Source: Phanerochaete sordida (Eukaryota > Basidiomycota > Agaricomycetes > Polyporales > Phanerochaetaceae). From it: a stretch of DNA of 64,000 bases. The position numbers and the translations under genes were made by a program. Every line of letters starts with the position of its first letter. Positions within the stretch are counted from its first letter, which is position 1. Location of the stretch: assembly GCA_019973155.2 (NCBI GenBank), contig BPQB01000033.1:1-64000 (forward strand), written 5' to 3'. Of the stretch, positions 27,887 to 63,213 are shown piece by piece. The notes under the pieces were generated by a model, which did no database searches, was not told the origin of the DNA, and was given only the letters and a program-made list of their open reading frames with translations.

Positions 27887-30597
27887 CTACGCGTCGGAAG
27901 AGAGCCCAGATACGCGGTCCGCAGCGCGCAAAAACGTCCCGACGAGGCCCTGTGCAGCACACCTCTCGAGCACGATAATGCGCTCGTCCGCTGTCCCGGC
28001 GGCAGGACAGTCCCAGCCCGCCTCGCTCTCAGCCAGAGCATCCGTGAGCAGCGTCTTCCTCTCGGTGACGTTCCGGCATCGCCTCGGGCACTCATCCACG
28101 GGCAGACCGTCGGCGCAGTCCCAGCAGAGCCGGTGTCCGCATGGACGGAGCTCGAATGACGCGGTGGCGGCGCAGTAGCAGCACCTGTGTTTTGTGGGGT
28201 CCGCGTCCGCGCGTTCTGCGAGCATGTGCTGCAGCGACTTGACCGCCGCGAGTGGGTGGGCCGCCGAGACGTTGTTCGCGGAGGGGATGCCCTCGTCGTA
28301 GAGGTCGAACCACGGGAGGCCAGCCTCGAGGTATGTTTCGATTGAGATCGGCGTCGGAATGGGAGGCTCGCCGGTGAGCCGAGCAAGGGCACCAGGGCTG
28401 AGCACCGAAATGTGCAGCCGGCAGCCCGCGTCGAAGTTGTATGCGGTGGCAGGCAGGCGGTCGCGGACGATCTTCTGCGCGATCTTGCCGCCCGCAGCGA
28501 AGCCAGCTTCGCGGGCCTGGAAGGCGTCGCCGGCTCCGCCCAGCATGCAGATGGATAGGTAAATTGTAGCCCCGTCAGGAATGTTGTAGTCTGTCAGGAT
28601 GCGTTAGTGGCAACCCAGCGCAGAGCAACTCGTAGACGCGATGCGAGGGATTGTAGCACGCACCGCAAAGACGCATGTCATCTTGGAGTCTCTCGCCATC
28701 GAATTGAAATCTTAAGACACCCGAACTAAAGCCTGCCTTGACCTCGACCCGGCTCTTGATCAGCTTGATAGTATCCATGGCGTCCGCGTGCACGGTCAGT
28801 ATGCCGCGGATGCTGTCGAGATACAAGGTCACTGTGGTTTTGGGTGAGAAGCTGAGCGTCCCTTAACAGAGTCGCTTACTTGGCCCAGTCTTCACCTTGA
28901 AAGTCTCTCCAATCGCCGTAAGATGCACCACAGACCCGATACTAGCAAGTTCGGGTTGTCGGGCAGTGAGGGGATGCGGGCTGGTAATGAGCAGGCTAAG
29001 CACTGGAAAAGCAGACAGGGGGACGCCAATAGCACACCTTTTTTCATCGTAGCATGTAATGACTTCGCCGACGAAGAGACCCTGGCTCAGAGCGGAAAAA
29101 TTCCTGTTGAGGCGAGTGTCGGCTGGGTCGTAGAACGACGACGGGGCGTCGAAGGTAGGAAAGACGTCAATTTGTATCCCGCCAATGTCCTACGCCACCT
29201 CAATGGCAAATGAAACGACAGATCAAAGGCGGTCGTACCTCTTTTCTGGTCATCTGAGCCTCAACGGTGAGCCCCTCGCCACTGGGAACCGCAACGAACT
29301 CTGCAGGAGAATCCAATCAGCGGTAAGTTCCTCTTTGGATGTTAGACAATGTACGTCGTACGACACCCCTCTCAGTACTGAATCCATCCTGCAGCCATCG
29401 TTAGTCATGAAATATGAACTAAACGGCCAAGCATCTTACCAGCCACCTGCAGAGCGTTACATGGGAGCTAGAGTTAGCGAATGTATGCAAAGTATCGGGA
29501 CAAAAAATGCGAGGGACTCAACCTACGTTTGCGAGACATATCCCGGAGTGACCGCCAGATAGTCCTGTCTGCCTTCTGTTCTGGCTCCCCGCGAAGCACC
29601 AGTGATGGCGTTCACGCCGCCTGCCGAAATCTTGACTGCGTACGGGGCGTCCGTCGACGCTCCTCGCAGCAGAAAGCTGATCCACATCGCTTCACATTGG
29701 TGCATGCCCTGTATGCAACTTCAGCGTGTTCGCCGATATGTGCGTACGCGAAAGCTCTACCATAAGGACTCCGCCTTTCGCCGCAATTGACGGCGGCAAG
29801 CGAGAGGAGAAGTCGGCAGCGTTTCTGATAGGCCAGTAGGTCAGAAATATGACAAAAAGGGCGTGAATTCATCCGCACAGGACAGGAAACTTTCCCAACC
29901 CTGCGGGTAGGGAGTGGGTCTTCCCGTCATCTGCACCGTAGGATTAGCCTGCTCACGCTCCTGTCAGATGTTTGCGGACGCACCGGGCACCCTGAGCGTC
30001 CTGAGTATGTCGTGAGAACAGGGTTTATAGGAGGAAGATAGGATCCATACCTCATGAAAGCCATGGAAACGCCGCCGACTTCCACGCTGTCCCCGTTGTG
30101 AATCTTGGCGTGGCTGAGTCCAGAAACCGAGCACTGCTGTGTGTCCCGCTGAGCCTTGGGACTGCTCATATTGATCACGCCACGTAGGTGCTCATGGTAG
30201 TACCGGCATAGGGGTTCCTCTCTACAGATGCATTAGGTCTATTTCAACGGATGCGCGCAGTGCACTCACGCGTTGATGCGCCCAGCCAACGTCTCTGCAT
30301 CGAACGCCGACGGCCCGCTCACGACTTCTAGCTTGGCTTTTTTGCGCGTGCTGAACGCTTTCGGCTCGTGGAAACCTATTTGGAGCGTCAGGCCGCGTCA
30401 TATAGCCCAATAATATGTCTATGACACGTACCGTTCCGGCGCATCTGCGCGACGAGATAGTCGAACGTCACCGGGACGGGCACGTCGTGCAGCTCGAGTC
30501 GGCTGGGCTTGCCGACATCGTTGCTTGTGTCGATGACAACCTTAACGACGCGCTTGGATTGTCTGCTTCGTGTCTTGTATGGGTGTCGCGCGAACAT
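27887..30597 (-). CDS. Ubiquitin-core multi-domain protein, copy A (degenerate ubiquitin unit)
   Basis: This is a member of a five-gene family in this window; the function is unknown. I chose the start at 30597 (MFARHPYKTRSRQSK) by alignment with copy B; an in-frame ATG at 30639 is possible. The N-terminal module has [49 protein letters not shown] and [14 protein letters not shown] with [15 protein letters not shown]. The 17-nt micro-exon is 29984-30000 and the 7-nt one 29440-29446. The ubiquitin-like unit (28832-28535) keeps the fold pattern (VTLYLDSIRGILTVHADAMD, DYNIPDGATIYLSI) but ends CMLGGAGD, not LRLRGG. The C-terminal module begins [20 protein letters not shown] and carries a RING-like cluster CCYC-x10-CGHRLCWDC-x8-CPRRC. 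The N- and C-modules are closest to copy B. Confidence 0.85.
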
Positions 30598-31015: not shown

Positions 31016-32700
31016 TCAAGAGTCGGTCTGAGTCCCCGCGACCGGCGCGGAAGATTTGTCGCCATCGTGCAGGCCGTTAGCCTCGATCGCGCTGGAAGCA
31101 TCTTCTGGCTTCTGCTCGGGATCCGTACTTGGTCGTGGTTGTGCCCGGGGCCGACGCCGTGGATCTCTCGAAGGGTCGTAATGCGTAGCTGGCAGAGCTG
31201 CGATACCGCCCACCGAAGGTTGAGCCGTAATCGGTACAGCAGCAGCACCACTGACATCGTCGATTGCAGCAGGCGGCGCAAGAGCTGAAGCTGCTTGTAT
31301 GCCCTGCCCAAGCCCTACGACGCCGGGACCCGGTAGCGGCCAGGGGACGGTCGGCACCTTCAGCACGGCCGGGCGCACAAGGAGGCCTCCTGGCAGCGTC
31401 GTCATCGGCGCGCTCGCGGACTCGTCCTCAGACCCTGGTGTCAGCGCGGCCTGGCGCTGTGCCCAGAAGAGTGTCGAGCCGGGCGGGTACACAGGCTGCT
31501 TTCCTTTGTCCTTCGCAACCGGCAGCTCGCCGTCCTCAGTGATATGCCCGGCGCGACTCGTTGGCGGAGACGTGCTGCGTTCTCTCGAGCGTGCCAAATC
31601 TTCAGTGGGACGCTGCCGTTTGTGGCTGCGCTCGTTGTCCGCATCGCCGTCGTCCTCTGGAGTCTCATCTTCGGAGCGTTTACGCTTGGAACGCGCCCCG
31701 GCCTGAACGGGCGGCGTGGTCGGTGCAGTGATGATGCTCGAAAGCAGCAACTCGGCGGCCTCTTCGTGAGCTTGGTTGGGCGACGGCGAAGGGTCACTTG
31801 GTTGGGTCTCCTGTGGCAGCACCTCGAATTCTGCAGGTGGTAGTCTGGTAAAGAAGTGAGCGAAGGCTGAATAGGTATGCAAAGCTCGCTCACGGAGTAT
31901 CCGCCAGCTCATCGTCATCGAGGAACGTTCCGTCAATGTACATCGGGCCTGGCCCCTCATATTCCTCAACATGCCACTCGTCCTCGTCGTAGTCCTCGTC
32001 GTCACCGTCGTCGTCATCCTCGCCTTCGCCGTCCTCGTCCCACTCGTCGTCATCTTCGTCTTCATCCGCCTTCGCATCCTCTTCCCCGTCAAAGTCCAGG
32101 TCGAACTCATCTCCGTCCTCGTCGAACAGCCCCAACTTGCCCTGCGCCTTGTCCGACAAATACGCGACGAACTCGGGGCCCGCGAGGCGTCCAGCGGTGC
32201 GCACGAGCTTAACAATCGCCTTGATCTCCTCCTCGGTCTCCTGCTCGACCAGGGCCGCCTGGGAGAGGAGCCGGTCCGCCTGCGTACAGACGTGTTCGAC
32301 GTGGCGCAGCGCGTCGGCGCGTGCGTCGCGGAGGTGGTCGAGCATCTTGTCGAGCCAGCCCGGATCCGGCGCGTCAAGCCCGGGGAAGGCGAAGGAGGTG
32401 TGCTTAATGCTTGCGGGAGGGGCGCCACTGGGCGCGGCGCGCAGGGTGTGCTCGGGGAACCAGTCGCGGAAGATAGCGTCTTGCTGCGCGCGTCGGACTT
32501 TCTGGCCACGTTTTGCACGCTCCTCGGAGGTTTCTTCTGGTAGAGCCTTCGACGAAGTAAGGTGATGTATGAGCGATGGCGTGTGGCACCAGGGTCCAGG
32601 ACGTGCAACATACTTGTGTTGGTGGGTTCGGTGCTGCATCCTTGCGTCCGGCAGCAGGACTTGCTGCCATGACTGGTCTGTTCAGTTGAGGGGGCGACAT
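31016..32700 (-). CDS. Acidic, probably nuclear hypothetical protein
   Basis: Three exons join in frame to about 500 residues. Exon 1 (start 32700, MSPPQLNRPVMAASPAAGRK; an alternative ATG is at 32670) ends at a GTATGT donor. Exon 2 begins ALPEETSEERAKRGQKVRRA and ends ELADTP at a GTGAGC donor near 31900. Exon 3 continues LPPAEFEVLPQETQPSD to the stop at 31016. The middle has a helical region (LRDARADALRHVEHVCTQAD) followed by an almost uninterrupted Asp/Glu tract of about 50 residues. The C-terminal part has nuclear-localisation-like clusters (RSKRKRSEDE, SHKRQRPTED) and a disordered Pro-rich tail. Acidic tracts of this kind suit histone or chromatin binding, but I recognise no catalytic domain. 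Confidence 0.7.
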
Positions 32701-33028
32701 AAACGAGAGAGAGGTTTGAAGCGAACTGTGGGCGTTGAAGGACAAGAACGTGCAGTGGCCTCAGCCACTCCCCCGGACCCTGCGCCGTATAAGGCAACTT
32801 CACGATCAAAGCGCCTCGAGACAACAACAAAGAAACATCTGTTCCATTTGGGGATGCGTTAGAAGCTACAGATAATACAGGGTCACCAAGGGTATAGCAC
32901 ACGTTACTAGGTATCTATGTCTGGGGACGGAACGCGACGGAGCTCGTCGCGAGAGGAGGCAAGGAGTGTGGCGGTGGCTGGAGGAAGCATTAACTCATCG
33001 GCTAGCGGCCTAAGATGTGGTCAACTAG
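32701..33028. other. Intergenic
   Basis: These 328 bases lie between the acidic protein's start and the 3' end of the zinc-finger gene (both on minus). No coding signal. Confidence 0.4.
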
Positions 33029-34083
33029 TTAGCAGAGTTTCCACCCAGATGTATGTGTAACGCACCCGAAATTGGCACGCAAGACCTCGTCGAGAAGTGC
33101 ATCCTTTCGTTCCCTCCACAGCAGCTCCTCGTGGCGCACCATTTGGAGTTCTTCGATAAGATGGGCATGCTCGCCAAGTAGGTGCGTGTGTCGCGCTTTC
33201 AGCAAAAGATACTTCACCATCTGGGGCGTTCGTCCGAGGATGAGCCCAGTGTTCGGGTCCTGCATGGCGAGGAGATGTGGCGGGATCTCTTCGTCGGGAT
33301 CGCTCTCGTCGTCAAAGTCGGGGCTGAGCGAGCGTCCGTTGCCATTTCCATTGGCGCGGTCGCCATTAGCATCGGGAGGCGACATCCTGTCGTCCATGTC
33401 CCCATTATCTGGTGGGTCAACCTTGAACGTGCTGTATCCGTCGTTGGTCGGCTGCGGGTTTGGCTCCGCGTCGTCACGCTTTCGCTTCCTGTTGCCGCCA
33501 CGTCCAGGTGCAGGCGGCACCATGTTGTGTTGCATGCGCATGTGCTTCGCGAGGGCATCGGAACGGGTGAAAGACTTATCGCACTCTGCGAGACTATGTT
33601 CAGTTTCAGGTGGCGTAAAGAAGTACGCCGTACGAACCTGGTCGCGTGCAGACGAATGGCTTCTCGCCGGTGTGGGATCGAATGTGAGATATAAGAGCGA
33701 AGCGAGACGTCTGTGCTATGCCTCTGCGCGCGCATGTCTTCCACTCGCACGTATAGTTCGACTTGTGCACGCCAATATGATCTGTTACAGATGTTGGAGC
33801 AGGCTCACATGATAAAAGAGGCCGTCTCACCACCGTGTATGTGATCAATGAGCGACGGCAGGTGGTCAAACACTTTGCCACAGTCCTCCCATTGGCAGGT
33901 CATGGTGTCGTCCCCCTCGGTCACCGGAAACTGCCCTTCAGCCGGCAGCGGCGATGCGGGTCGTGACGGCTCTACACCTTCAAAGCCAGCGGATTGGAAC
34001 TCATCTTCAGAGGATGAGTCGGAGACGTGCGAGGACTCGACGCCTGGTGAAGGTGAGGGGGAGTAGTATGGGCTCTGAGCCAT
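33029..34083 (-). CDS. C2H2 zinc-finger protein, INO80 subunit Iec1-like
   Basis: A nuclear zinc-finger protein of about 300 residues. The start at 34083 gives MAQSPYYSPSPSPGVESSHV and a Ser/acid-rich N-terminus. Three C2H2 fingers follow: CQWEDCGKVFDHLPSLIDHI; CEWKTC with FALISHIRSHTGEKPF; and C-x4-C with DKSFTRSDALAKHMRMQH. The linker pattern resembles YY1. The C-terminal helical region has NTGLILGRTPQMVKYLLLKA and EELLWRERKDALLDEVLRAN, which I associate with the fungal INO80 chromatin-remodelling subunit Iec1. That specific assignment is from memory. Three to four exons. It is divergent from TAF11, with only about 330 bases between the two starts. Confidence 0.75.
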
Positions 34084-34414
34084 ATGAACAAGGTCCGAGA
34101 TTTAAGCAAGAGTCGCGATATGTTGAAATGCCTAAGCGAGCAAGCCTCCGCAGTGATTTGGCGAAGAGAATGATATGGCGATAGGGCGAGGGAGGCGAGG
34201 GTGTGCTGAGCAGTGCGGTGGCGGACAAGGACGAGTGGCAGCGTCCAGAATTCATAGCGGATCAGGTCAGTCGGGTAAGTGAGTCGGTCAACTAGAGCAG
34301 ACGCCCGTGCTTACAGGTAAGCAAGCTACTTACCGTGCGAACTTTGCAGCCAACGGCGCTGAAGTTGTGCTCCGGCTTCGTGTCGCCTGCTTCTCCCCAA
34401 CTACCTCGTCAACG
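34084..34414. promoter_or_regulatory. Short divergent promoter region (zinc-finger gene and TAF11)
   Basis: Only 331 bases separate the two divergent starts of nuclear/transcription genes, so the promoter elements are probably shared. I see no TATA box at a suitable spacing. Confidence 0.4.
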
Positions 34415-35433: not shown

Positions 35434-35758
35434 CGACTGTCTCGCCCACGCACATTCGAAGCCGAGAAACCGGCTAGCCGACGACGAAGCGTCATCGGAA
35501 AACGTCTCGGTCTCCGTCTTTTTTGAGCTGGCTCCGTTCAAATATCCTGTGAGTCTGTCAATCATCACGTCCTCATCATGTATAGATCCCAGTCGCTGTA
35601 ATATTGTACCTTGCAATTCACGTATACCTCTCGCAATTACCGTCCTATGATGTCCATCACACACCAAGACCACATCTGCAACGACGGAACGGCCACGGAC
35701 CCATATCACATTCAATGAGGCTCATGGCACAAGTGTGGACACTCCTGTCCTCGGGCAT

Positions 35759-35880
35759 GGCTTGATCCTGCTGTCGCAAGCGTGTCGAAACAATGCGCCG
35801 AGGACTGAACATCGTTGGGCGTGGCGTACGATCACAGCTCAGATACGCGACCACGCATCACGAGTTGAGTACTTCCTTCC
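35759..35880 (+). pseudogene. Fragment of a DUF6533-type gene (3' end)
   Basis: An isolated frame reads HGLILLSQACRNNAPRTEHR, then WAWRTITAQIRDHASRVEYF. It aligns without gaps to the last exon of the two DUF6533 genes at the left end: His to Trp is 22 residues in all, and GWSTFSAQVRD or GWNTLSARVSD corresponds to AWRTITAQIRD. The upstream exons are missing because TAF11 ends only 325 bases before. I read it as a truncated, dispersed copy. Confidence 0.45.
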
Positions 35881-49449: not shown

Positions 49450-52140
49450 ATGTTCGTACCCCCCACTCAATGGTCGCGTTCTGCACGCAAGGTGAAAGTT
49501 ATCGTCGATACGAGCAATGAAATCGGCAAGCCCAGTCGCCTCGAGCTGAGCGACGTGCCGATGCCGGTGTCGTTCGAGTACCTCGTCGCGCAGATGCGTC
49601 GGAACGGTTTGTCAACGAGTCCTGGCTGGCGATTGGCTTGACACTGACGACACAACCAGGTTATCCCGAGCCGACGAGCTTCGCGACGCGCACGCGCGTC
49701 ACGCTCACTGTGGGCAAAGGCCCGTCGTCGTTCGACCCGGATACCCTCAGCGGGAACATCAACGCGTAAGAGCATGGCTACACGCGTCAAATGTCGCCCA
49801 TAACTCACCGCGTTGCAGGGACGAGCCACTGTGCCGATACTACCACCACCACCTTCGCGATACCATCAAGCTGCCGGCAAATGAAACACGGAACAGAACG
49901 AGCAGCGACCTTTCCCCGGGCTTGAGCTGCGCTAGGATTGGTACTACCAATGTTGAAGTCGGAGGCGTCACCATGGCGTTTATGAGGTATGCCCATACGC
50001 TACTATCCACCATACGCGCCTTCCCTGACTGTATACCCAGAACTCTCAGGGTTCCCGGTGCGTCAGAAGGTGGCCGCTTCACATGCTCTCACAGCTCATG
50101 CCGCTCTAGACGACGGCAAGGCGTACTCTCTGCCTGCAGGGATCGGCAAATTTCCTCTCCAGTGCGTGACGCCTCCATTCAGACCCTTGCCCACTCACCG
50201 AGGCGACCTAGCAATGCGGCAGACTTTGCGTCTCGGCTTCCTCCGGCGATTGCAAGGAAAGGCGGAGTGGTCATGGTCGGCATTCCACCCACCCGCATAT
50301 AGCCCTCAATTGTCGCTAATACTCCAAGTTCAGGCAATGCACCAGTGCGAGGCCCTGTGGATAGGGTTCCTCGGAGCAGCGTCGCACGCATCATACGCAG
50401 TCAAGGTGTCAGCAGGAGGCGTGAACGCGATTACTGGTGCGCCTCGCGATGCTAGCAGCGAAGGCAGGCAGGACTACCTGGCAGTAAACTACGCTGGCGG
50501 CGGCGCACAAACGTACGTAGCTCAGTCTGTATTGCTTAGATCTCATCGATTCTCAAACTCGGCGCTGCAGGTGGCTGGTAAGGCCAGTCGCTTGTCTGGA
50601 ATGCGATTTTGCTTACGATTACCTTAGGACGGGTTTAGCACCGAAAGGGGTGTAGTCCGACGTAGGTGGTGATCAATATGCTGGTCTACCTATATTACTG
50701 ATAGCTGTTTGCAGAGTTTGTAGCCGTACCTACTGGCCAGGGGCTTACTGTCGAGGCTCAGATCACTGGGAAAGAGGTATGATATTCAAATCACCAACCT
50801 AGCCACGATAGTATTCTAATTCGGCTTGAATCATAGGACATTGGAGGTCTACAAATAGACGTGTTCCCCACCTATGAAGCTCCTTCGTCCTTCTTCGGAC
50901 GGGGGAACATTCGACTGGATCGGAATCTCTCAGCTCTCGGTCAAGGCCTCGCCGTTGGCTCCAGCATCACATGCATAGACATTGACGGGTATGACACGAA
51001 TGCCTTATTGACATCTATCGCGTCGCTGACTGTGTGATAGCCCGTCTTGTCTGAAAGCTGGAATGCCCGCACTTTCTCGTGCAGGCTCTGTGTTACATTT
51101 GTCAGCAGTTGGTGAAGCTTTCGTCTGCAACGACCAAGCGAGTGAGATTTTTAGAATTACGCTCTGTCTAATTGCTTGCACTGACCTCTGTCGTAAATTC
51201 TAGCCCATATTTACGCAAAGACCCTGACCGGAAAGACCGTCAGCTTGTGTGCCAGTATGATGACAACAGTGCACGACGTCAAGACAATGATACAAGACAA
51301 AGAGGGCATCCCTCCAGACCAACAACGCTTGATATTCGCGGGTGAACAGCTTCAAGATGGCAGACATCTGTTCGGTACGAACTCCATGCTACAATGCATA
51401 TCTATGCGATACGAGGAGTCTGACTGTTTTCGTGACTAGAGTACAATATCTTTCCAGGGGCTGTGTTGCATCTAGTGCTCCGCCTGCGTGGTGGGGGAGA
51501 TGCCTTCATGGGCCGCGGTGCTGGCTTCGCCGCGGGAGGCAAAATCTCACAGAAAATCATCCGCGACCGCCTGCCCGCCGCGGCATACAACTTCGACGCG
51601 GGCAGTCGCCTCCATATCACGGTGCTGAGCCCCGCCGTGCTCGCGCAGCTCACCGGCGAGCCGGCCCTCCCCACGCCGATATCGGTCCAGTCCTACCTCG
51701 CCGCCGGGATCCCGTGGTTCGACCTTTACGACGAGGGCCTGCCCTCCGCGAACAACGTCTCGGCCGCACACCCGCTCGCCTCTGTGAAGTCGCTGCAGCA
51801 GCTGCTCGCGGAGCGCAGGGACGCGAACCCGGCGCGGTACAGGTGCTGCTACTGCACGACCACTGCGTCGTTCCAGCTGCTCCCGTGTGGCCATACGCTC
51901 TGCCAGGACTGCGCAGACGGGCTCTCGCCGCGCGAGTGCCCGAAGGGCTGTCGACTGGTGACGGGCAGGAAGATGCTCGTCTCGGAGGCGCTTGCGGAGA
52001 GCGAGGCGGGCTGGGACTGCCCCGCCGCGGGGACCCCGGACGAGCGCATTGTCGTGCTGAAGCGGTGCGCTGGGAAGGGCATCGTCGGCACGTTCTTGAA
52101 CGCAGGGGATCGTGTCGCCGGGCTATCCTCTGACGCGTAG
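49450..52140 (+). CDS. Ubiquitin-core multi-domain protein, copy B (canonical ubiquitin tail)
   Basis: First of four tandem copies, about 660 residues. The start at 49450 gives [20 protein letters not shown], then [20 protein letters not shown] and [17 protein letters not shown]. Next come [37 protein letters not shown] (through the 17-nt exon 50041-50057), [26 protein letters not shown] with [28 protein letters not shown] (7-nt exon 50571-50577) and [20 protein letters not shown]. The ubiquitin unit (51204-51495, one intron) has [34 protein letters not shown] and [11 protein letters not shown], followed by GD. The C-module is [20 protein letters not shown]..., with RING-like [13 protein letters not shown] and CPKGC at 51844-51951. 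Position 48 is Glu instead of Lys. Function unknown. Confidence 0.88.
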
Positions 52141-52269
52141 AGGTCCGTAGATGTGTAGAAGAGCAGGTGGTCGGCTTGACGGTCGGCGGCCCCTTCTCTC
52201 AAGAGAGCAGATGAGGTAGTGCGTTGATCTTGCTTCATATAGGACAGTTCTTTCCCTTCCCCTTCCCTG

Positions 52270-52560
52270 TAATTGTATTGCCTGCCTACGAGGAGCTTCT
52301 TGCTACTAATCTTCGTCATGGGCGGCGGGTACGTCGACCACAGGCAGGATCCCTACTACCTTTCCGCAGGCGGCACCATCGCGCAGACGATAATGCGCGA
52401 CAGCCTCGATGCCGCTGCGTATAGTTATCTCTTGACTCGGGCACCTGCGTCCATGTCGCGATGTCCACTGCTCCTCTCGCGGATCACTGGCTGCTCAGCG
52501 GTCCCAACGCGTCCACCCTCCTGTTTTGCTACGCCCACTTGTCAGCGCAATGCGATACAA
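52270..52560 (+). pseudogene. Broken ubiquitin-core copy (tail plus C-module fragment)
   Basis: A frame from about 52282 reads RSFLLLIFVMGGGYVDHRQD, which matches the ubiquitin tail [14 protein letters not shown]. It continues LSAGGTIAQTIMRDSLDAAA, matching [20 protein letters not shown] of the intact copies. After about 52425 the match moves to another frame (DSGTCVHVAMSTAPLADHW against [19 protein letters not shown]). This is a frameshift. No N-terminal module or RING cluster is recognisable nearby. It is a decayed sixth copy between B and C. Confidence 0.65.
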
Positions 52561-52916: not shown

Positions 52917-55623
52917 ATGCCCGTAGATGCGCCGCCGAAGACCGTCAAGGTCATCATCGACACCAACAACTGGGTGCGCAAGCCGCTGCAGCTCGAGCTC
53001 GAGGATGTGCCATGGCCTATGACAAATGATTACCTTGTTGAGAAGATGCGCGAGAATGGTCGGTGCAGATTGTCCCGAGGCGATTCGGTAGGCTAATAAA
53101 CTCCTATAGATTTCCCCGAGCCAACGGGATTTAGCACACGAAGGCAGGCGATCCTCCGGGTCGTCGACGGCCCATCGCTATTCGACGCTAATACGCTCAA
53201 CGGCTCTATCAACTCGTACGTACATCTACTCATGCGCTGTAGCGGTTCTGCGCTGACTGCGTTTGCGTGTAGAGACGAACCTTTGTGTCGGTACTACCAC
53301 CACCACCTGCGCAATGTCATCAAGCTGGAAAGCCTCGCAATCGAGGGGGAGAAGGATAAGGCCGACGTGCTTGGCTTGAGCCATGCCAAGATCGGCCAAA
53401 ATGAAGACAGAGTCCAGGTCGGAGATGTAACGGTCGCTTTCATGCGGTGAGTCAAGTCGAGATCAGCGTCTCCGAGCTTGCTGTCTCTAAATGAATTATC
53501 GTAGAACACTCCGTGTGCCTGGTATGTCGCGACATGAATACATCGCCGTCCATCGCGTGTGACGCTGAGCCTGCCCTCCCCAGACGACGGGAAGACCCAT
53601 GCTTTGCCAGCGGGCCTTGGCAAGTTTCCACTGTAGTTCGTCTATCTGCTTCCTTTCATGCCTGTACCTCCTCGCTGACTCCACAAGCAGCAATGCAGCA
53701 GCCTTCTCACCCCACCTCCCTCCTGGGATCGCGCGCAAGGGCGGCGTCCTCATGGTACGCGCACGATCTGAGCCGATTCTACCTTGATAGATGCTTACAG
53801 ACGGTTGATCAGGGGATGCACCAGTGCGAGGCAATGTGGCTGAGTTTCCTCGCATCATCACGCTACCCATCGTACGCGGTCAAGGTGTCCGCAGGCGGCG
53901 TCAACGCCCTCACGGGCACGCCGCGCGGTGCGAAGAGTGAGGGCCGGCAAGACTACTTGGCCGTCGCGCCGCGTGATACGGCTCAGATGTGAGCGATTTT
54001 TGAAGCCCGCGAGAATGTAGTCTCATCATGGGATTTGGATGTCAAGTTGGCTGGTGAGCTTGGGCGCGCGGTGGCATCATTATGATTGCTGAAGGTTGTC
54101 CAGGATGGGTTCTGCACTGAAGAAGGGGTCGTCCGACGTGAGTGATAATATCCAGAGCCTCGTTGCTCTTCGCATGACCCTGGCGTGCAGAGTTTGTCGC
54201 AGTTCCGCTTGGAGAAGGCCTCACAGTCGAAGCTCAGCTAACAGGCAAAGAAGAAGTTGGCGGGATACAGCTCGACGTGTTCCACCCCTACGATGCGCCG
54301 TCATCATTCTACGACATGAGAGAGATCGCGCTCGATGTTAACCTTTCCGCCGCCGGCCAGGGTATTCAAATCGGCCAAACTATCAGATGTGTCGACGAAC
54401 ATAAGTGCGCGTTTTTCCACGATTTCTGTCTCGCGGCATCACTAATCGTCCGCAGTGCTGTAGCTTTGTCTAGTTCTGGTGTACTCCACATACCGAATGT
54501 CGGCTCTACAGTTTATTTGTTTGCGCTGGGCGACCCCTACAGCAACAGGGGTAGGCTACCTGCATTCGCTGTTATCCCGCCCTCACTAATTGCCAAGTCT
54601 ACAGGTCAGATCTTTGTCAAGACTTTGACGGGATACACGATAACGCTGGAGGTGACCAGTCGCGACACTATTGCCCGTGTCAAAGCCAAGTGTTTCGAGA
54701 AGCAGGGCATACCTGTTGACCAGCAGCGGCTGATATTTGCTGGGAAACAGTGGGACGATGGAAAGACGCTCGCAGGTATGTATTGTGTACCACACTGAGG
54801 TCTCTCGCGTTCATTTTGCTGACACAAATATTTCCACGAAATAGAGTGTGGAATAGGTAGAGAATCTACCCTGCACATGGTCCTCAGGATGCGGGGTGGC
54901 GGAGACAGCTTCGAGTCACGCGGTGCGGGGTTCGCCGCGGGTGGCAAGGTCGCGCAGAAAATCGTCCGCGATCGCCTGCCCGCTGCGGCCTACGATTTCG
55001 ATGCCGGTGCCCGCCTGCATGTCACAGTGCTCAGCCCCGCTTTTCTCGCGCGCCTCACTGGCCGCCCGCCGCTCCTGACGCCAATCTCCGTGCAAACGTA
55101 CCTCGACGCGGGCCTCCCGTGGTTTGCGCTCTACGATGAGGACCTGCCCGCTGCAGACAACGTCGCGGCACCGCCAAAGCACCGGCTCGGCTGGGTCAAG
55201 TCCCTCGGACAGCTGCTCGCACGCCGCCGCGAGTCCGCGCATCCGGCGCTGCACCGCTGTGCGCGCTGCAGCGACACCGCGAGCGTGCAGCTCGTCCCAT
55301 GCGGGCACCTCATCTGCACGGCCTGTGTGCGCGGGCTCGCAGATACCGAGTGTCCGATGCACTGCCGCCTCGTCATGCGCCGCAAGACGGTGCTCGGCGA
55401 CGTACTCGCGGAAGCCGAGCTGGCGTGGGACTGCCCCGCTGCGGGCTCGGCGGACGAGCGTGTTCTCGTGCTGGTGCGGTGTGCGGAGGCGGGCCTCGTC
55501 GGGACGTTTGTGTGCACGTCCGACGACGTGTCGAGCCTATGTTCTGGTGTCAGTGACTTCACTGACCTTGTTAGTCTCGTTCCCCTCTGCTCCAGCGCTC
55601 GCTCGGACAAGGCCGAGCGGTGA
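52917..55623 (+). CDS. Ubiquitin-core multi-domain protein, copy C
   Basis: The start at 52917 gives [20 protein letters not shown]. The N-module continues [58 protein letters not shown] (17-nt exon 53505-53521), [29 protein letters not shown] with [29 protein letters not shown] (7-nt exon 54047-54053) and [20 protein letters not shown]. The ubiquitin unit (54605-54900) is [40 protein letters not shown] and [12 protein letters not shown], followed by GD. It keeps K6, K27, K29, K33 and K48; K11 is Tyr and the tail has Met for one Leu. The RING-like cluster is [13 protein letters not shown] and CPMHC. The C-terminus is longer than in other copies ([16 protein letters not shown]), and its stop lies eight bases before an inverted repeat. 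Confidence 0.88.
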
Positions 55624-55630
55624 ATCCGTC

Positions 55631-56799
55631 GGACTTCGAAAAAGCGAAGTGGATTCACCTGCTTAAGCGTCTGGTGACAATCGCTTAGGCGGGTGGGGGT
55701 CGTTGACACGTGACCTGGCGCGTCCCTCGCGAGGCATCGACGTCCGACCCTCGTCCGTCCCGTTTCTCGTCGTCTTCGCCTCAAACGACCTCCGAACCCT
55801 TCCGTTACATGTCCCAAAATATATGCCGAATTTTATTGATGTCATTGGCCGTGTGGAACACCGTATCTCGGTACTATAAGCCCCGGCGGCAGCTCAACAC
55901 ACGCGGTGTGCGCGGTATCAGTCGAGCAACAACTGCGAGAAGACTCGAAGAGCATCGCAATGGTCGCCCTCAAAGCGGGCTATCGCTTTGACTCCTGGCA
56001 CGACGAGGACGCGACCGAGGGCGAGGTCTCGGGCAAGCGCATTTGGAAGGCACGCGCGTGTGCGGGAAGACGGCGCATGTCGACAGTAGACAGGCAGAGA
56101 CAGCCCATGAAATGCTGGCGCAGCCCCTATATGCTGCGGCAGTGCACTGGAGAGCAAACCGTGTGCGTGCCGAATATGTCCTCGGGGATTGTAGAGAAGT
56201 TGGGTGGGGAAGGCTCGAACTCGAGGTATCTGGCACATCCGGGTGCACGACGCGGATGCTCTGCAATGCCTCATGTTCTGGTTCGAGGGTTTGAGCGCGC
56301 CGCGGCGTGAATATACTGCTCGCGGGGCGCGATGCTGGGAGGGCTGCGCAGACAAAGTCTAGCATATACTCACCTGACACCTACGCAGATCTCCCTCGCT
56401 CTCCCAGCTCACAGCTCCTCATTCGCGACTCTCCAAGTGCCATAGGAGTCCTTGCACGCTGCTTCGCATTCAACGGTGTTGCTAGGGCGCGTTCGAAGCG
56501 TGTGTAGGTGGCCGTGTCTGAGGTCGCCGAGGGGCCGCCTCTCGATGCACTGTCCGGGTCCGGAACGCTCTGAATCGTGTTATACGACACTGTAAGGGAC
56601 AAGAGTGAACCCTACGTGCCGCTGAGGGAGTAGGTCTGGAAGAGCAACTGGGGGCAGGGGGTGGAGGGAGTCCGAGGGACGACTGGCGCGGTACGCGGGG
56701 AGGTGTGGGGAAGGGGTCACGTGTCAACGACCCCCACCCGCCGAAGCGATTCTCACCAGACGTCCTGGTACGGGAATGCTCTTCGGTTTTTCGAAGTCC
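55631..56799. mobile_element. 1.17-kb segment bounded by 85-bp inverted repeats
   Basis: The left arm 55631-55715 and the right arm 56715-56799 are inverted copies of equal length, about 72 of 85 positions matching by eye and no gaps. Both outer ends begin GGACTTCGAAAAA, and the inner 25 bases (around GGGTGGGGGTCGTTGACACG) are identical. The roughly 1-kb interior has no recognisable transposase; its open frames lack domains. I read it as a non-autonomous transposon, or a pair of facing copies of one short element. No clear target-site duplication is visible. It fills most of the gap between copies C and D. Confidence 0.6.
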
Positions 56800-57133
56800 G
56801 CCCTGCATTCCGCCCGGCGAAGCCCGGGCGTGCCAGGGCGGCTGGGAACGAGACTATGACCTTGTCTCTCCTCCCGAAATCGAGCTTTCATAATGTATTG
56901 ATCCGTTAATTACTTCCGCTGACCGGATCAGAAAGCTCTGTTATCGCATGATAATTGTAGCGTGTTTACTTCTGTCCAATCTCTCACTTTGACCACCACG
57001 GTTCGCGACTGCCCCAGAGAACCTTCGACTTTCACGCCCAGGTGGGTCAGGTATATGGCTATGTCAGTGGCGCAGATTATTTCCAAGCTAAAAGCTCCGG
57101 ATATTAGTGTTCAGTCGCCGAGCGAACTTGAAC

Positions 57134-57140
57134 TATATAA
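57134..57140 (+). promoter_or_regulatory. TATA box of copy D
   Basis: TATATAA lies 46-52 bases upstream of the ATG at 57186, so the mRNA leader would be very short (about 20 bases). Confidence 0.6.
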
Positions 57141-57185
57141 ACCTGCCTCGTTCTCGGATATGGCTCTTTGCATCCCTTCTCTTGC

Positions 57186-59960
57186 ATGGCGACGCCTCCG
57201 ACGATCTTCCAACGCGTAACGACGAAGTTGGGCTGGCGACGCTCGACAAGCACGGTCGCAGCTTCCCAACCAGTGAACGCACTTGAGACACATGACGCGA
57301 CAAGGACTACCGACCTCGCAAACCGGACTATCGACGTGGTCGTCGACACGTCGTCGTTCTATGGGAAGCCTGGAGAGATCGTGATGAAGGATGTGCCTCT
57401 GCCGCTGTCGTTCGCGTACTTGGCAGAACGGCTGAAAAGCAGCTGTGAGGCTCGTCTCGCATCTTCGCCACTCCTATCAGCTTACAGCTGGTATTATAGG
57501 TCATCCCACGCCGAAGAACTTTGTCACGCGTTCGCAAGATGTCACTATCCAAGTGGCGAATGGCCCTTCGTCACTCAATCTCTCCACGATGACTGGCTCT
57601 GTTAACATGTGCGTGTCATTTGTCTCATCACGAGAGCGCGTCTGATATTGTCTTGCAGCAATGAACCGCTGTGTCGCTTCTATCACTATCAGTTCCTGCA
57701 GCCCACCGGGCTCGTGAACGCACCCAACAAGAGCAAAAACGCTGAGCTGCCCGCAGGTGTCGACTCTGCCGACCTCGGGTGGGAAAACGACGACGTGACC
57801 GTCGGCGACGTCAATATTAGCTTCATGCGGTATGTTATCTTATATTCGTTCAATACAGGTGCTTACCCGTTTGCCAAGCAGAACAGTCAGAGTACCTGGT
57901 GAGCGTCATTGACCACGTGCCTGCGAGCAATAGTGACAGGCGTGCGCCGTAGACGACGGCAAGACACACCCTCTACCCGCTGGCCTTGGAAAATTCCCTC
58001 TACAGTATGTAGCCTCTTGATGTGTATGCATTTCGGGCTTATTGACCCCCATTTTCACGGTCAGCAACACTGCTACTTTCGCCGACCACCTTCCCCGCTC
58101 GATCGCCTCCAAAGGTGGTATCCTCTTGGTCTGTCCCTTGCCACTTGTCGAGACTCTGAGCTGATGCCGCACGTCTGCAGGGCATGCACAAGTGCGAGGC
58201 GATGTGGATGGACTTCGAAGTCCGCGGCCGCGGGCCGTCGTGCGCTGTCAAGGTCTCTGCCGGCGGCCTGAACGCGCTCACCGGCGAGCCCCGCAGTGCT
58301 GTCGTGAAGAACCAGCAGGACTATCTGGCTGTTAGGGCTGATGACAATGGACAGCCGTGCGTGATTTTCGTTCGAGTGAGGTTCGATGCGTGTTGATAGA
58401 TTTTCAGCTGGCTCGTACGTGATGTTGAACGGTGGATGGGGTCATGACTGAATCTACATGCAGGATGGCTTTAGCACCAAGCAAGGCATCGTTAGACGTG
58501 AGGTGTTTGGCTGCGATGGGGCTTTGCGATGGCTTATCATGCCCCGACAGAATTCGTGGCTGTACCTCTCGGCCAGGGTCTTACGGTCGAGGCGCAGCTC
58601 ACTGGGCGCGAGGTAGACATACAGCCATTAGATCGTACCCGATAAACTCACATGTCGCCAGGATGTCGGAGGCATCCAAATCGACGTGTTCCCGCTTTAC
58701 GAGGCGCCATCCAAGATCTACACCGAGGACGGCAAGCTGCTCGATTCCTACAAGTCTCCGCGTCAACAAGGCTTGCGGGTCGGACAGAAGATCAAGTTTG
58801 TTGACCCGCAGACGTGCGTCGCCGTGTTCCTGTAGCATGTGCAAACATATTAATGGGCTCGGTCTAGGACTGGCCAATTCCTGGCCGACGACAGCAAGAG
58901 CGGCACATACATCGAGAACCCGCCACTGTATGTACATACGCTGCACCTCTCCGCGCGCCCTGAGTACCTCGGTACGCCTCCGCTGCCACATGTCGACTAT
59001 CTCGACTGACGCCGACGCGCACTACCCAGTTTACGTCAAGACCTTGACGGGCAAGACCATCGTCCTCTTCGTGCGCCCATCCAACACCATCGACAACGTG
59101 ATGTACATGATCCAGGACGACGAGGGCATCCCGCGTGACCAACAGCGCCTGATTTTCGCGGGCAAGCAGCTCGAGGACGGCCGTACCCTCTCGCGTATGT
59201 CCATCCGCGCGCCTTGTTCGACCTGCTGACACACCTAGCAGACTACAACGTGCGCAACGGCGAGACACTGCACCTCGTCCTGCGTTTGCGCGGCGGCGGC
59301 GGTCCCGTGTCGGCCATGCTGGCGCGCGCACCCGAGGGGGCCGCCCAGGGCTTCGCGGCCGGCGGGCGCATCGCGCAGAAGATCGTGCGCGACCCGCTGC
59401 TGCCGAGCGCGTACGACTTCGCGCGGGGCACGCGCTTGCACGTCGGCGTGTTCGACGCGCGCGCGCTCGCACAGCTCACCGGCGCACCGCCGCCGCCGTC
59501 GCCCGTGTCCGCGGAGACGTACAGCCGCCTGGGCCTGCCGTGGTTCGACTTCTTTGACGAGGGCGTGCCCGCGGCGGACAACGCGCCGGCGGACGGGAAC
59601 GCCCTGGCGGACGTGCGCTCGCTGCGCGAGGCGCTCGAGGGGCGCGCCTGTGCGTACTGTGGTGGGCCCGCGGGCTTTGCAGTGCGGCCGTGCGGGCATC
59701 TCCTGTGCCAGAAGTGCTCAGATGGGTTGCCGGAGGACCAGTGCGCTAAGAAGTGCCCTGGCGTCACGGGGCGCGAGAGCGTCCTCGGCGCGGACGTCTT
59801 GGAAGAGGGTGATAGTGATTTTGAGTGCCCGGAGGCGGGGTCGGTGGATGAGCGCATCGTGATCTTGAAGAGGTGTGCGGACAGGAACGTCGTGGGCACG
59901 TTCAGACGTGAGGCGGACAACGTTTCGATACTTTCTGCTGCGTCGACTCTGGTGGGATGA
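57186..59960 (+). CDS. Ubiquitin-core multi-domain protein, copy D (best ubiquitin unit)
   Basis: The start at 57186 gives [20 protein letters not shown], a longer N-terminus shared in type with copy E. The module continues [74 protein letters not shown] (17-nt exon 57882-57898), [57 protein letters not shown] (7-nt exon 58408-58414) and [20 protein letters not shown]. The ubiquitin unit (59022-59297) is [40 protein letters not shown] and [11 protein letters not shown], followed by GG. The C-module begins [20 protein letters not shown]; the RING-like cluster is [13 protein letters not shown] and CAKKC. The gene ends SAASTLVG. Canonical tail; a member of the D/E subgroup. Confidence 0.88.
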
Positions 59961-60373
59961 GAGATCTGCGCATCCGTCCCATCTTCCTAACACACGCGAT
60001 ATTTACATGCATCGATTTCAGGGTGTCTTGGGTCATTTTATCATCGTTCTCTCGTCCTTACTGTTGCATTGTATGATACTCTGATCCGCTATGAACCTGC
60101 CGTCTTCCGTTGATCGGAACACCCACATTGCGCTAGCGTACGCTAAATGTTGCACGCGTTTCTTTCTTCTTCCATCTCGACCTCCAGGTGCCTCCAGGAG
60201 TCTTTGCAAAAGCTTGAAGTGCACACCCACAGGTATGAAGATCTGTGGCTGGCATGAGGCGATGCGACTGATGCTCAGGGTCCCGTGTGTCCCCGTTCTA
60301 TTATCGCTGTCAGGGAGGCCCGCATATAAACCATGACCTCAGTGCACCCGCGCCCCTCACAGATCCACTCAGC
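59961..60373. other. Spacer between copies D and E
   Basis: These 413 bases hold the 3' flank of D and the promoter of E (TATA box at 60325). No other gene. Confidence 0.45.
60325..60330 (+). promoter_or_regulatory. TATA box of copy E
   Basis: TATAAA lies 44-49 bases upstream of the ATG at 60374, the same short spacing as in copy D. Confidence 0.6.
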
Positions 60374-63213
60374 ATGTCCTCGCCGCGGGGCCTCTACAGA
60401 CGGCTCACGTCGAGCCTCCGCTGGCGGCGCTCTAGCGTCGCAGGTGCAAAGTGCGAGACTGAAAGCACGATAGCGCAGAACACCGACGGCACCGGAGGGC
60501 AGAAGACAGAAGGCCGCACTATCGACGTCGTCGTCGAGACCTCCGCGTTCCTGGGAGCGCAGATGCAGCTCGTGCTCAAGGACGTCCCTGTGCCGGTGTC
60601 GTTCTCGTACCTGGCCAGGCGGCTGGAGCCCTATGGTAGGCTTTCCCGTGTATTCACATGGGGCGCCAGGCTTACGAAGCTGCAGGCATTTTTGCACCTG
60701 TGAACTTCGTAGCGTGCGCAGAGGTGGTGACGGTAGAGGTCACCGATGGGCAGCCAGGCCTTGACGTCGGCGACATGGCTGGGCTCGTCAGCATGTAAGT
60801 TATGTGCCTCAGGGTGGGCGTGTCTGACAGAGGGGCTTTGTACAGTGACGAGCCGCTCTGTCACTTCTATCACCACCACTTCCTGGTACCAGCTGGGATA
60901 ACGAGGCCGACAGGCTCTTACGACCTTCCTGACGATGTCAGCACTGCCCGGCTCGGCTGGAGCAGCGACGACGTCAACGTCGGCGGCGTCAATATTACCT
61001 TCATGAGGTGCGCGGCATCCTCGGTAGTATGAACGCTTCCCAGCATGCTGATATCGAGACGTCAGGACCACCAGAATTCCAGGTCAGTCACGCTGCTTGT
61101 AGGTAGGCAACCCTGGATGCTTACCACGCTCGAAACTCCAGACGACGGCAAGAGCTACGAGCTTCCGACAGGCCTCGGGCAATTCTCGCTGTAGTACGCC
61201 ATTCCGTGCTCCAATGTCCGCATCATGTACTCATGGAAGCTTCAGTAACACTGCATCGTACGCCGATCGCCTGCCCTCTGCGCTCGCCGACAAGGGTGGG
61301 GTCCTTATCGTGAGCATACCGGACACTTCCTCTCGCTCATGCTGAATATACGTGCAGGGCGTGCATCGCTTCGAGTCGATGTGGCTCGCGTTTGAGGTCC
61401 GAGGCCGCTCCCCGGCCTATGCTGTCAAAATCTCTTCGGGAGGCTTGAACGCGCTCACCGGCCTGCCAGTCAAAACCGTGGCCGGTGAGAGACAGGACTA
61501 TTTGGTGGTACGGCAGGATGGACAGGGACAGACGTGAGTCCTGCAAAGGCTGGCTATATGCGCTCGTTTGGCTCACAAATTTGTGTCAGGTGGCTCGTAC
61601 GTCGCGCGGTGGTAATGACGATGATGCCCTGCTGACCTGAACTTGTTCGCCAGGATGGGTACTGTACGGCAAAAGGCGCTGCTAAACGTAGGTGTTGGCA
61701 TGAAAGCTGTCATGCAGGAGGCTGAGCGTGCTTCTGCAGAATTCGTGACCACACCTTCAAGCGAAGGGCGCACTGTGGAGTCGCAGCCGGCCGAACAGGA
61801 TGTGAGTCTACGATGCTGCGCCGGGATCGAGCGATGGTCTTATGTTCTTCCAGGACATCGCGGGCATCCAGATCGACGTTTTCCCGCTGTACGGCACGCC
61901 GTCCAAGTTCTACACCGAAGACGGACGTGAGCTCGATCCCTATCAGTCTCCGCGCCAGCAAGGATTGCACGTGGGGCAGAAAATCGTATTCGTCGATCCT
62001 CGAAGGTAGGCTCAAGAGTCGGGCAGAGATAGACGACCTGATAATTACAAGAGAATAGCGAGAACCAATTTTTGGCTGAAGACACGAGCAGCGGGACGTA
62101 CATCCAGAATCCGCCGGCGCACATGCGCACGCTGCGCTTGTCCGCGCGGCCGGATATGCTGAGTAGGTCACGCGGACGAGCCTCTGCTCAGTACGCTGAC
62201 CCCTTTGTGGCCCATAGTCGTCGTGAAGTCGCTCACTGGCACAGTCAACACGCTGTTCGTAGACCCGTCGTGCACCATCGAGGGCGTCAAGTGCATGATC
62301 CAGAGCGAAAACGGCGTCCCTCCGGACCACCAACGCCTGATATTCGCGGGCAAGCAGCTCGAAGACGGCATGCGTCTGTCAGGTGTGCCTCTTGCCAAAT
62401 ACGTGCTTCCACCCGTCAGACCGACATTCGCACCCAGATTACTACGTCGGCAACGGCGCCACGCTCTACCTCATCCAAATCCTGCGCGATAACGGACCAT
62501 CCACAGACCCCGCCTCCGCTCCCATCCCCCTCACCGCCGGCGGGCGCGCCCTCCAGAAACTCGTGCGCGACCCGCTCCTCAGGCAAGCGTACGACTGGCG
62601 GCGGGGCACGCGCCTGCACGTCGCGCTGCTGGACCCCGCGTCGCTCGCGCAGATCACACGCGCACCGCCATCGGCGTCGACCGTCACGCTGTTCACATAC
62701 GTCCGCGCACGGCTGCCTTGGTTCGACTTCTTCGACGAAGGCTCCGCGAGCGGGCGGAGGCTGGGCTATGCGGGCTCGGACCTCTCGCGGAGGGACGGCG
62801 AGTCTCTCGCAGAGCTATATGGCGAGAGCATAGAGGACGCGGACCACTCGGAGTTGCGCGAGCGCGAAGGCGAGGAGACACCACGCAACCTGGACGGGGA
62901 GCACGGAGATGGTGGAGGCGGGATCAGGTGCAGCTACTGCTCTGGCGTCGCGCGCTTCATGGCGAAGCCGTGCGGACACCCGCTCTGCCGTGGGTGCGCG
63001 GCGGGCCTACCCGACGACGAGTACGTCGCGATGGACCTGGGAGCGGCGCGGGCCAAGGCCTCGTGTGAAGACAGGGCGCTGGGCTCGACGGCTGGGCCTG
63101 CAAACGACCGCGTCGCGGTGCTGAAGCGCTGCGCCGGGCGCGGGCTCGTGGGCACGTTCAGGGGGGCCGTGGACGACGACTCAGGGCCTTCGTTCGCAGC
63201 TGTCCCGGGCTGA
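60374..63213 (+). CDS. Ubiquitin-core multi-domain protein, copy E (degenerate ubiquitin tail and RING)
   Basis: The start at 60374 gives [20 protein letters not shown]. The N-module continues [58 protein letters not shown] (17-nt exon 61066-61082), [58 protein letters not shown] (7-nt exon 61590-61596), and [20 protein letters not shown]. The ubiquitin unit (about 62202-62495) keeps the core [18 protein letters not shown] and [18 protein letters not shown], but its end reads [14 protein letters not shown]: the di-glycine tail is gone. The C-module ([19 protein letters not shown]) has an inserted acidic stretch. The RING-like cluster keeps CSYC and CGHPLCRGC but lacks the last Cys pair ([11 protein letters not shown]). 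Probably catalytically inert, or diverged in role. Confidence 0.85.

What the first reader, a model, noticed from the sequence alone, without database searches (positions are those of the whole stretch)
27887..63213. Five-gene family with a ubiquitin unit embedded between a conserved N-module and a RING-like C-module
Copies A (27887-30597, minus) and B-E (49450-63213, plus) share one architecture: an N-module of about 370 residues with unique motifs (DEPLC-x-[FY]YH, VPDDGK, SAGGVNA, WLDG), a complete ubiquitin-like domain, then GFAAGG...IVRD...PISxxTY...PWFD followed by a RING-like Cys/His cluster. I recall broadly similar uncharacterised proteins in Agaricomycetes, but know of no assigned function. 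A ubiquitin moiety and a RING-like zinc cluster in one chain suggest a self-contained tagging device. In B, C and D the ubiquitin tail runs into further sequence like a precursor, so cutting after GG would release an N-terminally tagged, conjugatable ubiquitin and a free RING-like fragment.
Basis: partly seen in the sequence, partly recalled or inferred. Interest (0 to 1): 0.88.

Follow-up and report, generated by a model that had tools for sequence, protein, structure and literature searches.

The report
Ubiquitin nested inside an ancient protein
Five neighbouring genes of a wood-rotting fungus encode a protein that carries ubiquitin, the cell's protein tag, in the middle of an ancient domain shared with bacteria, and the tag's reactive end is so well kept in distant relatives that the protein is probably cut there to make a ubiquitin with cargo attached.

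Summary
Copies A-E are intact 13-14-exon genes at the stated coordinates in a Phanerochaete sordida genome; no further copy was found in the assembly. The N- and C-modules are not fungal inventions: together they match a bacterial protein of about 320-380 residues (463 encoding stretches in GTDB genomes) whose halves are predicted as one beta-rich domain without a convincing PDB match. Ubiquitin sits between the halves in fungi, protists and giant-virus records. The fusion is in print as 'ubiquitin-IMP' (Sibbald 2019, PMC6332867), without a mechanism in what I read. New here: Gly75-Gly76 occur in 158 of 164 members (RGG in 143; about 50 pairs expected from the rest of the domain) and are its most conserved positions in diverged members. 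Four unnamed metagenome members carry a Hint (self-cleaving type) domain whose first Cys directly follows Gly76, as in the ciliate BUBL system. Best reading: a precursor cut after Gly76, leaving conjugatable ubiquitin tethered to the N-half and parting it from a C-half with a RING-like cluster. B, C, D fit; A's ubiquitin is decayed, E lost the GG and a RING Cys pair. Cleavage, conjugation and ligase activity are inferred.

The parts
27887..30597 (-). Copy A, whole coding region (14 exons, 661 aa)
   Evidence: hand-built spliced model, introns GT-AG, no stop
28535..28880 (-). Copy A: decayed ubiquitin-like insert, ends ICMLGG (crosses an intron)
   Evidence: 30% identity to ubiquitin, residue 72 Cys, 44 Gln; 29% to B's unit while core1 and core2 are 77% and 79% identical; coordinates
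28049..28186 (-). Copy A: RING-like Cys/His cluster
   Evidence: eight candidate ligands by eye; Pfam RING below cut-off
49450..52140 (+). Copy B, whole coding region (14 exons, 656 aa)
   Evidence: identical to deposited P0001
51206..51495 (+). Copy B: ubiquitin insert, ends LRLRGG then G (crosses an intron)
51523..51840 (+). Copy B: core2 half of the bacterial-type domain and the stretch up to the RING-like cluster
   Evidence: profile search, coordinates
51841..51978 (+). Copy B: RING-like cluster
   Evidence: zf-RING_5 E 0.0011, below curated cut-off
52276..52518 (+). Decayed remnant of the last exon (core2) of a sixth copy
   Evidence: tblastn E about 2e-4 to 3e-4 with A, B and C
52917..55623 (+). 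Copy C, whole coding region (13 exons, 669 aa)
   Evidence: deposited P0003 differs in a few splice choices
54607..54900 (+). Copy C: ubiquitin insert, ends LRMRGG then G (crosses an intron)
55255..55392 (+). Copy C: RING-like cluster
   Evidence: ligand pattern by eye; motif test on deposited P0003
57186..59960 (+). Copy D, whole coding region (14 exons, 696 aa)
   Evidence: identical to deposited P0006
58971..59297 (+). Copy D: ubiquitin insert, ends LRLRGG then G (crosses introns)
   Evidence: PF00240 E 4e-23
59649..59786 (+). Copy D: RING-like cluster
   Evidence: zf-C3HC4_3 E 0.01, below cut-off
60374..63213 (+). Copy E, whole coding region (14 exons, 712 aa)
62162..62493 (+). Copy E: ubiquitin insert without GG (ILRDNG)
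   Evidence: 59% body identity, tail lost
62926..63063 (+). Copy E: degraded RING-like cluster (last Cys pair missing)
   Evidence: alignment of the five copies; coordinates

Best explanation
Each gene encodes a two-half beta domain of bacterial ancestry (core1 and core2) with a ubiquitin inserted between the halves and, here, a RING-like cluster after core2. In the working copies (B, C, D) the ubiquitin tail is a processing site: ordinary deubiquitinases (in some protists a built-in Hint domain) cut after Gly76. Ubiquitin then has a free, activatable C-terminus while its N-terminus stays joined to the core1 half, so the core1 half becomes a payload that can be attached to targets through ubiquitin; core2 plus the RING-like cluster is freed or stays bound to core1, where it could bring an E2 near. 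Shown: gene structure, order of parts, kinship of the cores to bacterial proteins, strong conservation of Gly75-Gly76 (with Arg72-Leu73-Arg74), Hint placed exactly after Gly76 in four relatives. Inferred: that the cut happens in Phanerochaete, that the product is loaded and conjugated, that the cluster is an E3, and the biological use (a role in non-self or stress response is only hinted at by relatives).
For: GG present in 158 of 164 core2-proximal ubiquitins, 49.7 expected if the pair were kept as well as the body; RGG in 143 of 164. Among 60 with body identity under 50%: G75 98%, G76 97%, R74 80%, L73 80%, mean of all positions 40%; pair G75-G76 95% against at most 47% for adjacent pairs outside the tail. 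Detection by the body alone: GG in the expected 16-residue stretch in 148 of 161, against 540 of 3280 random stretches. RGG in 108 of 126 ubiquitin-bearing spacers, in 5 of 43 long ubiquitin-less ones; RGG lies 5-24 residues before core2 in 107 of these 108 (the one at 180 is a Hint-bearing member), so the GG is not part of core2. [quoted passage not shown] The stretches on either side of ubiquitin in B have pLDDT under 50 (residues 359-363 and 439-447), so a protease could reach them. Split members P0065 and P0077, and P0246 which looks the same, have the first half of ubiquitin before core1 yet keep the tail half with RGG just before core2.
Against: No cleavage or expression data. The window copies have no Hint domain. 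A has lost Arg72 and Arg74 and E has lost GG, with core1 intact, so part of the family does without the site. If core1 and core2 stay packed, a cut may release nothing. 64 of 190 members in one set have no detected ubiquitin, so the core has a job of its own. P0077 has Pro after GG, which many deubiquitinases cut poorly (recalled). Fifteen of the 158 GG are not RGG; in P0008, P0126, P0140, P0168 and P0258 the context is not ubiquitin-like, so these may be alignment accidents (P0258's true ubiquitin, upstream, does end RGG). P0064, a fourth split form, shows neither RGG nor core2.
Confidence: 0.5

Rival explanations
1. The ubiquitin is never cut. It is a built-in docking surface (for ubiquitin-binding proteins, E2 back sides or the proteasome), like the UBL domains of Parkin or UHRF1, and the protein works as a one-chain scaffold or ligase.
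For: RING-like cluster in the same chain; residue 44 is Ile or Val in 88 of 126 members; spacers that look like degenerate ubiquitin folds by eye, without a tail, exist in some Ascomycota.
Against: Docking does not need Gly75-Gly76, yet these are the most conserved positions; a Hint domain directly after Gly76 makes no sense for an uncut module.
Confidence: 0.2
2. Tripwire or decoy: the embedded ubiquitin is bait. A foreign or regulated deubiquitinase that cuts after GG splits the core domain and sets off a response, in the manner of protease-sensing immune receptors.
For: Some Agaricomycete relatives have an N-terminal MLKL-type helical region before the same core (P0015 listed with PF22215; P0023 weak, below cut-off; P0042 by eye only); bacterial relatives lie beside zincin peptidases (9 of 38 scanned downstream neighbours) or carry a trypsin domain (P0046).
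Against: The three MLKL-type members looked at (P0015, P0023, P0042) have no detected ubiquitin, so bait and executioner do not occur together there; house deubiquitinases would cut such bait all the time.
Confidence: 0.12
3. A plain ubiquitin fusion: ubiquitin was captured by a bacterial-type gene and, like the ribosomal-protein fusions, only helps folding or adds to the ubiquitin pool; its GG is kept because unprocessed fusions are harmful.
For: Ubiquitin fusions of many kinds exist in eukaryotes (PMC6332867, one section part and passages).
Against: An insert whose N-terminus stays joined to core1 cannot release free ubiquitin with one cut; where a second unit precedes it, it often lacks a clean tail. 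The bodies have diverged: all 126 of the first set lie below 80% identity to ubiquitin, unlike pool ubiquitin.
Confidence: 0.1

Closest known systems
Ubiquitin-IMP fusions (Sibbald et al. 2019, PMC6332867; section 6 part 1 of 2 and passages seen)
   Same: Fusion of ubiquitin with a bacterial protein annotated 'integral membrane protein', reported from B. natans and 87 further species; for fungi the paper writes 'found in 63 of the 88 species examined', which may mean 63 of the 88 fusion-bearing species. In most fungi ubiquitin is in the middle; split forms occur; fungal sequences branch together, as the named fungal rows do in my tree.
   Different: In the parts I saw they report no conserved GG, no Hint or RING link to this fusion, no fold and no mechanism. 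The 'membrane' label is not supported here: highest 19-residue hydropathy mean in the window copies 1.77 (C), others 0.92-1.58. That their IMP is this family rests on names and description; their sequences were not compared.
BUBL loci of ciliates with BIL domains (Dassa 2004 and Chiarini 2021 as cited in PMC8616854; passages seen, the two papers themselves not)
   Same: Ubiquitin-like domain followed directly by a Hint/intein-like self-processing domain; four relatives of the window genes have this layout.
   Different: No core1/core2 is described there; the window copies have no Hint domain.
UBL-plus-RING proteins such as Parkin, UHRF1, HOIL-1 (recalled)
   Same: Ubiquitin-like domain and RING in one chain.
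   Different: Those UBLs have no conserved, internal, cleavable GG and do not interrupt a split domain (recalled).
Ubiquitin-ribosomal protein fusions and polyubiquitin (recalled)
   Same: Ubiquitin followed by GG and more sequence.
   Different: There ubiquitin comes first and is released; here something precedes it, so it would remain tagged.

Membership tests
Ubiquitin-IMP fusions (Sibbald 2019) | homology of the partner to the bacterial protein family called IMP | tested here: inconclusive
   bacterial homologues of both halves and several fungal homologues named 'integral membrane protein' fit; direct comparison with the authors' sequences was not possible
Ubiquitin-IMP fusions (Sibbald 2019) | ubiquitin in the middle of the partner in fungi | tested here: met
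   all 126 proteins of the first set that have both cores and a ubiquitin hit have a hit between the cores; two of the split forms have a further hit before core1
Integral membrane protein | transmembrane segments | tested here: not met
   19-residue hydropathy maxima 0.92-1.77 in A-E (C borderline), 1.11 in a bacterial member; longest helix of the B model 13 residues; no dedicated TM predictor was run
Processable ubiquitin precursor | ubiquitin fold with ...RGG followed by further sequence | tested here: met
   B, C, D; not met in E, weakened in A
Processable ubiquitin precursor | actual cleavage after Gly76 | not testable with these tools
   needs expression
Conjugatable ubiquitin | Arg42, Ile44 and Arg72 kept for E1 contact (importance recalled) | tested here: met
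   all three present in B, C, D; A lacks 44 and 72, E lacks 72
RING E3 ligase | eight Cys/His zinc ligands and a Pfam RING match above cut-off | tested here: inconclusive
   pattern present in A-D with C-x3-C at the end, Pfam below cut-off in A, B and D (C and E not scanned); broken in E
BUBL | BIL/Hint domain after ubiquitin-like unit | tested here: not met
   no Hint in A, B or D by Pfam, and too little space between tail and core2 in all five copies. In relatives: PT-HINT above cut-off in P0250, P0258, P0265, Hint below cut-off in P0063
Known fold class for core1+core2 | significant match to a solved structure | tested here: inconclusive
Fungal HeLo/MLKL-type cell-death proteins | N-terminal four-helix executioner domain | tested here: not met
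   absent from A, B and D by Pfam; C and E not scanned; only relatives have it

The most novel reading that the evidence does not exclude
Eukaryotes and giant viruses share a ubiquitin variant that carries an ancient bacterial domain as payload: the precursor is cut or self-cleaved after Gly76, in some lineages by a Hint domain that would give a ubiquitin thioester without E1 or ATP, and the payload-bearing ubiquitin is then attached to targets, possibly by the RING-like fragment made from the same chain, as part of a defence or non-self response.
Probability: 0.27. Interest if true: 0.88.

Novelty: new variant of a known kind. Interest (0 to 1): 0.66.

Why it matters
Ubiquitin is normally made free and sent to targets; here it is nested in a domain shared with bacteria, and the part of it that changes least is its reactive end. 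If the cut product is conjugated, cells would own a tag that carries a whole protein half-domain, a kind of modifier of which I found no report in fungi (ten paper searches). The Hint-bearing relatives give a direct test, and the paralogues A and E supply natural losses of tail or RING.

Tried and rejected

Chance explanation of the GG: rejected by body-only detection, random stretches and ubiquitin-less spacers. In the 13 misses the window was displaced by indels in several; P0085, P0208, P0066 and E look like real losses as read. Members without GG: P0090, P0121, P0066, P0208, P0118, E.

Search for Hint-bearing members in viral contigs by a degenerate DNA pattern: 48 stretches, none with a ubiquitin tail before core2; three phage-like chance matches to the tail motif. 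In the 23 related viral loci no ubiquitin tail was seen in the DNA held.

Literature: FGSG_08156 gave no paper; ten searches in all; among their listings only Sibbald 2019 turned out to describe this fusion, but most listed papers were not opened. Opened: PMC6332867 (section 6 part 1, passages), PMC8616854, PMC7159879, PMC9815663 and PMC6243002 (passages only). Most subscription papers are not in the library; supplements could not be read.

Tree: 135 rows chosen from 313 usable ones, quick method; ubiquitin/no-ubiquitin changes 10 times, an over-count because split forms P0065 and P0246 were scored 'no'. Root uncertain; a bacterial clade of 25 rows sits among the eukaryote branches. One deep gain with later losses is a reading, not a proof.

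dN/dS between copies: dS is saturated in many modules; used only to compare modules within a pair.
Full report
What is there. The window is part of contig C33 of a 40.8-Mb assembly; deposited proteins identical to copies B and D are from Phanerochaete sordida. The five genes were modelled by hand; every model is continuous, with GT-AG introns at matching places, down to a 7-base microexon. A search of the whole assembly with B gave 47 matches; those outside the cluster are to ubiquitin and its close flanks, so no further copy of the cores was seen (counts there are lower bounds). Just after B lies a decayed last-exon remnant, 52276-52518.

The two modules are halves of one bacterial-type family. 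A search with residues 1-366 of B (106 proteins at E <= 0.001; only the 7993 candidates sharing most words were scored) returned, beside fungi, proteins of about 360-470 residues, one named as from a Pyrinomonadaceae genome. A profile of 21 of them found 463 encoding stretches in GTDB species genomes; the 80 kept come from Cyanobacteria, Chloroflexi, Acidobacteria, Myxococcales, Gemmatimonadota, Desulfobacterota, Planctomycetota and others. AlphaFold gives one of them (318 aa) pLDDT 90.8 and pTM 0.89, with the stretch 181-194 between the halves under 50. So core1 and core2 most likely form one beta-rich domain, and ubiquitin was inserted into its spacer. No solved structure matches convincingly.

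Where the ubiquitin is. In 217 proteins (215 found plus A and E), core1 was found in all and core2 in 190; in 126 of these 190 a ubiquitin hit lies between the two, and 64 have none. Of 142 proteins with any ubiquitin hit, 14 have two hits and two have three, split forms included. A third search, seeded with P0106, gave 4499 homologues, 120 listed: core1-ubiquitin-core2-RING recurs in giant-virus records (Hyperionvirus, Harvfovirus, Homavirus), in Heterosigma and in eukaryote transcriptomes; a Streptomyces protein has both cores without ubiquitin, an Anaeramoeba protein core1 without a ubiquitin match. In a tree of 135 cores the named fungal rows fall in one clade of 64 rows (SH-aLRT 99), with Basidiomycota and Ascomycota apart within it, and ubiquitin-less MLKL-type members nest among ubiquitin-bearing Basidiomycota, which looks like loss.

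The tail is what selection keeps. Over 336 proteins, 306 had both cores and 164 a ubiquitin between them. Gly75-Gly76 are present in 158; if the pair were kept as well as the body of each domain, about 50 would be expected. RGG is present in 143; of the other 15, five (P0008, P0126, P0140, P0168, P0258) have a context unlike a ubiquitin tail and may be accidents of alignment. In the 60 units with body identity under 50%, Gly75 and Gly76 stand at 98% and 97%, Leu73 and Arg74 at 80%, the mean position at 40%; the best adjacent pair outside the tail reaches 47%, Gly75-Gly76 95%. Choosing units by their body alone gives 148 of 161. The residue after GG is Gly in 96 of 120 in the first set. Without GG are P0090, P0121, P0066, P0208, P0118 and E.

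A self-cleaving type of domain at the same bond. In P0250, P0258, P0265 and P0063 the sequence runs ...LRLRGG-CF..., and the Cys is the first residue of a Hint-type domain that ends in HN, after which core2 (in P0258 first another ubiquitin-like stretch) follows. PT-HINT scores above its cut-off in the first three (37-41 bits against 27.7); in P0063 the Hint scores are below cut-off (23.0 against 29.7), but the first Cys, a TxxH motif and the late HN are readable. That these mark an active Hint domain is recalled knowledge. The four come from unnamed metagenome contigs; on the tree three form a clade and P0258 stands apart. In Tetrahymena BUBL1 a comparable domain, BIL2, attaches a ubiquitin-like unit to substrates without ATP (PMC8616854, passages). 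A Hint domain placed exactly there is hard to explain unless the bond after Gly76 is meant to break.

Split forms. In P0077 and P0065 ubiquitin residues 1 to about 50 lie before core1 and the rest, with RGG, lies just before core2; P0246 looks the same; P0064, which has the first half, shows neither RGG nor core2. Sibbald et al. report split forms too (PMC6332867, section 6 part 1). The tail stays in place even when the body is torn in two.

The paralogues. B, C and D keep ...R[LM]RGG-G, Arg42, Ile44 and Arg72. In A the ubiquitin is only 29% identical to B's while core1 and core2 are 77% and 79%, and Arg72 and Ile44 are gone. E keeps the body (59%) but ends ILRDNG, and its last RING Cys pair is missing. 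All five keep core1. So core function can be separated from the ubiquitin, and A and E are natural controls.

Context. In bacteria the gene is followed by an astacin/M10-type peptidase gene in 9 of 38 scanned downstream neighbours and by a protein kinase gene in 5, and preceded by a helix-turn-helix gene in 12 of 46 scanned upstream neighbours; one metagenome member carries a trypsin domain (P0046). Some Agaricomycete relatives have an MLKL-type N-terminus (P0015 by database annotation; P0023 weak). This hints at regulated proteolysis and cell death, but does not fix the function. Ten large ORFs between A and B, and just before B, have no Pfam family.

Mechanism and verdict. The cut after Gly76 is the best-supported inference (I give it 0.6). 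What follows is less sure: a free C-terminus on a ubiquitin that remains tied to core1 could be charged by E1, since N-terminally extended ubiquitins are conjugated well (recalled); the RING-like part could act as E3, but the window's clusters are weak matches. The overall statement gets 0.5.

Novelty. The fusion as such was described in 2019 as ubiquitin-IMP, common in fungi and with ubiquitin in the middle there (PMC6332867). In the parts I saw (section 6 part 1 and passages; supplements not held) there is no mention of a conserved GG, a Hint domain or the fold; 'glycine' occurs 0 times in the main text and 'intein' 0 times. I therefore file this as a new variant of a known kind.

Noticed in passing
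window 52276-52518 (+): Decayed remnant of the last exon of a sixth copy, between B and C.
   Followed up: partly
bacterial loci L011, L012, L013, L018, L037, L045, L048, L051, L065 (core protein) and L015, L069, L072, L073, L076, L078, L080, L081, L082, L085, L086 (gene upstream): A C-terminal tail DGDW ends either the core protein (9 of 80 loci) or the gene just upstream, many of them helix-turn-helix proteins (11 of 80), never both in one locus: perhaps a shared recognition tag or degron.
   Followed up: partly
L010, L021, L025, L026, L028, L030, L046, L056, L058, downstream of the core gene: Astacin/M10-type peptidase gene beside the core gene in several bacterial phyla (9 of 38 scanned by Pfam; loci picked out by identity to L010's gene; HExxH-type motif in the next gene of 10 of 80 loci).
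   Followed up: partly
BFVD search of the bacterial core model: Weak structural matches to uncharacterised proteins of nudi-, asco-, irido- and granuloviruses (E about 2e-4 to 4e-3, target TM-score about 0.4-0.5 but rmsd above 8); the core may have distant kin in arthropod DNA viruses.
   Followed up: no
window exon 8 of each copy, e.g. 50571-50577: A conserved 7-base exon in all five genes.
   Followed up: yes
L109-L131: Core proteins, with no ubiquitin tail seen, on IMG/VR contigs, many of them over 100 kb, so large viruses may carry the core as well.
   Followed up: partly
window 31019-49012: Ten large ORFs between copies A and B without any Pfam family.
   Followed up: no
P0040, P0053, P0054, P0120, P0211: Members with tandem ubiquitin units joined ...RGG-M or LQGG-M in the spacer, like a short polyubiquitin.
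   Followed up: partly
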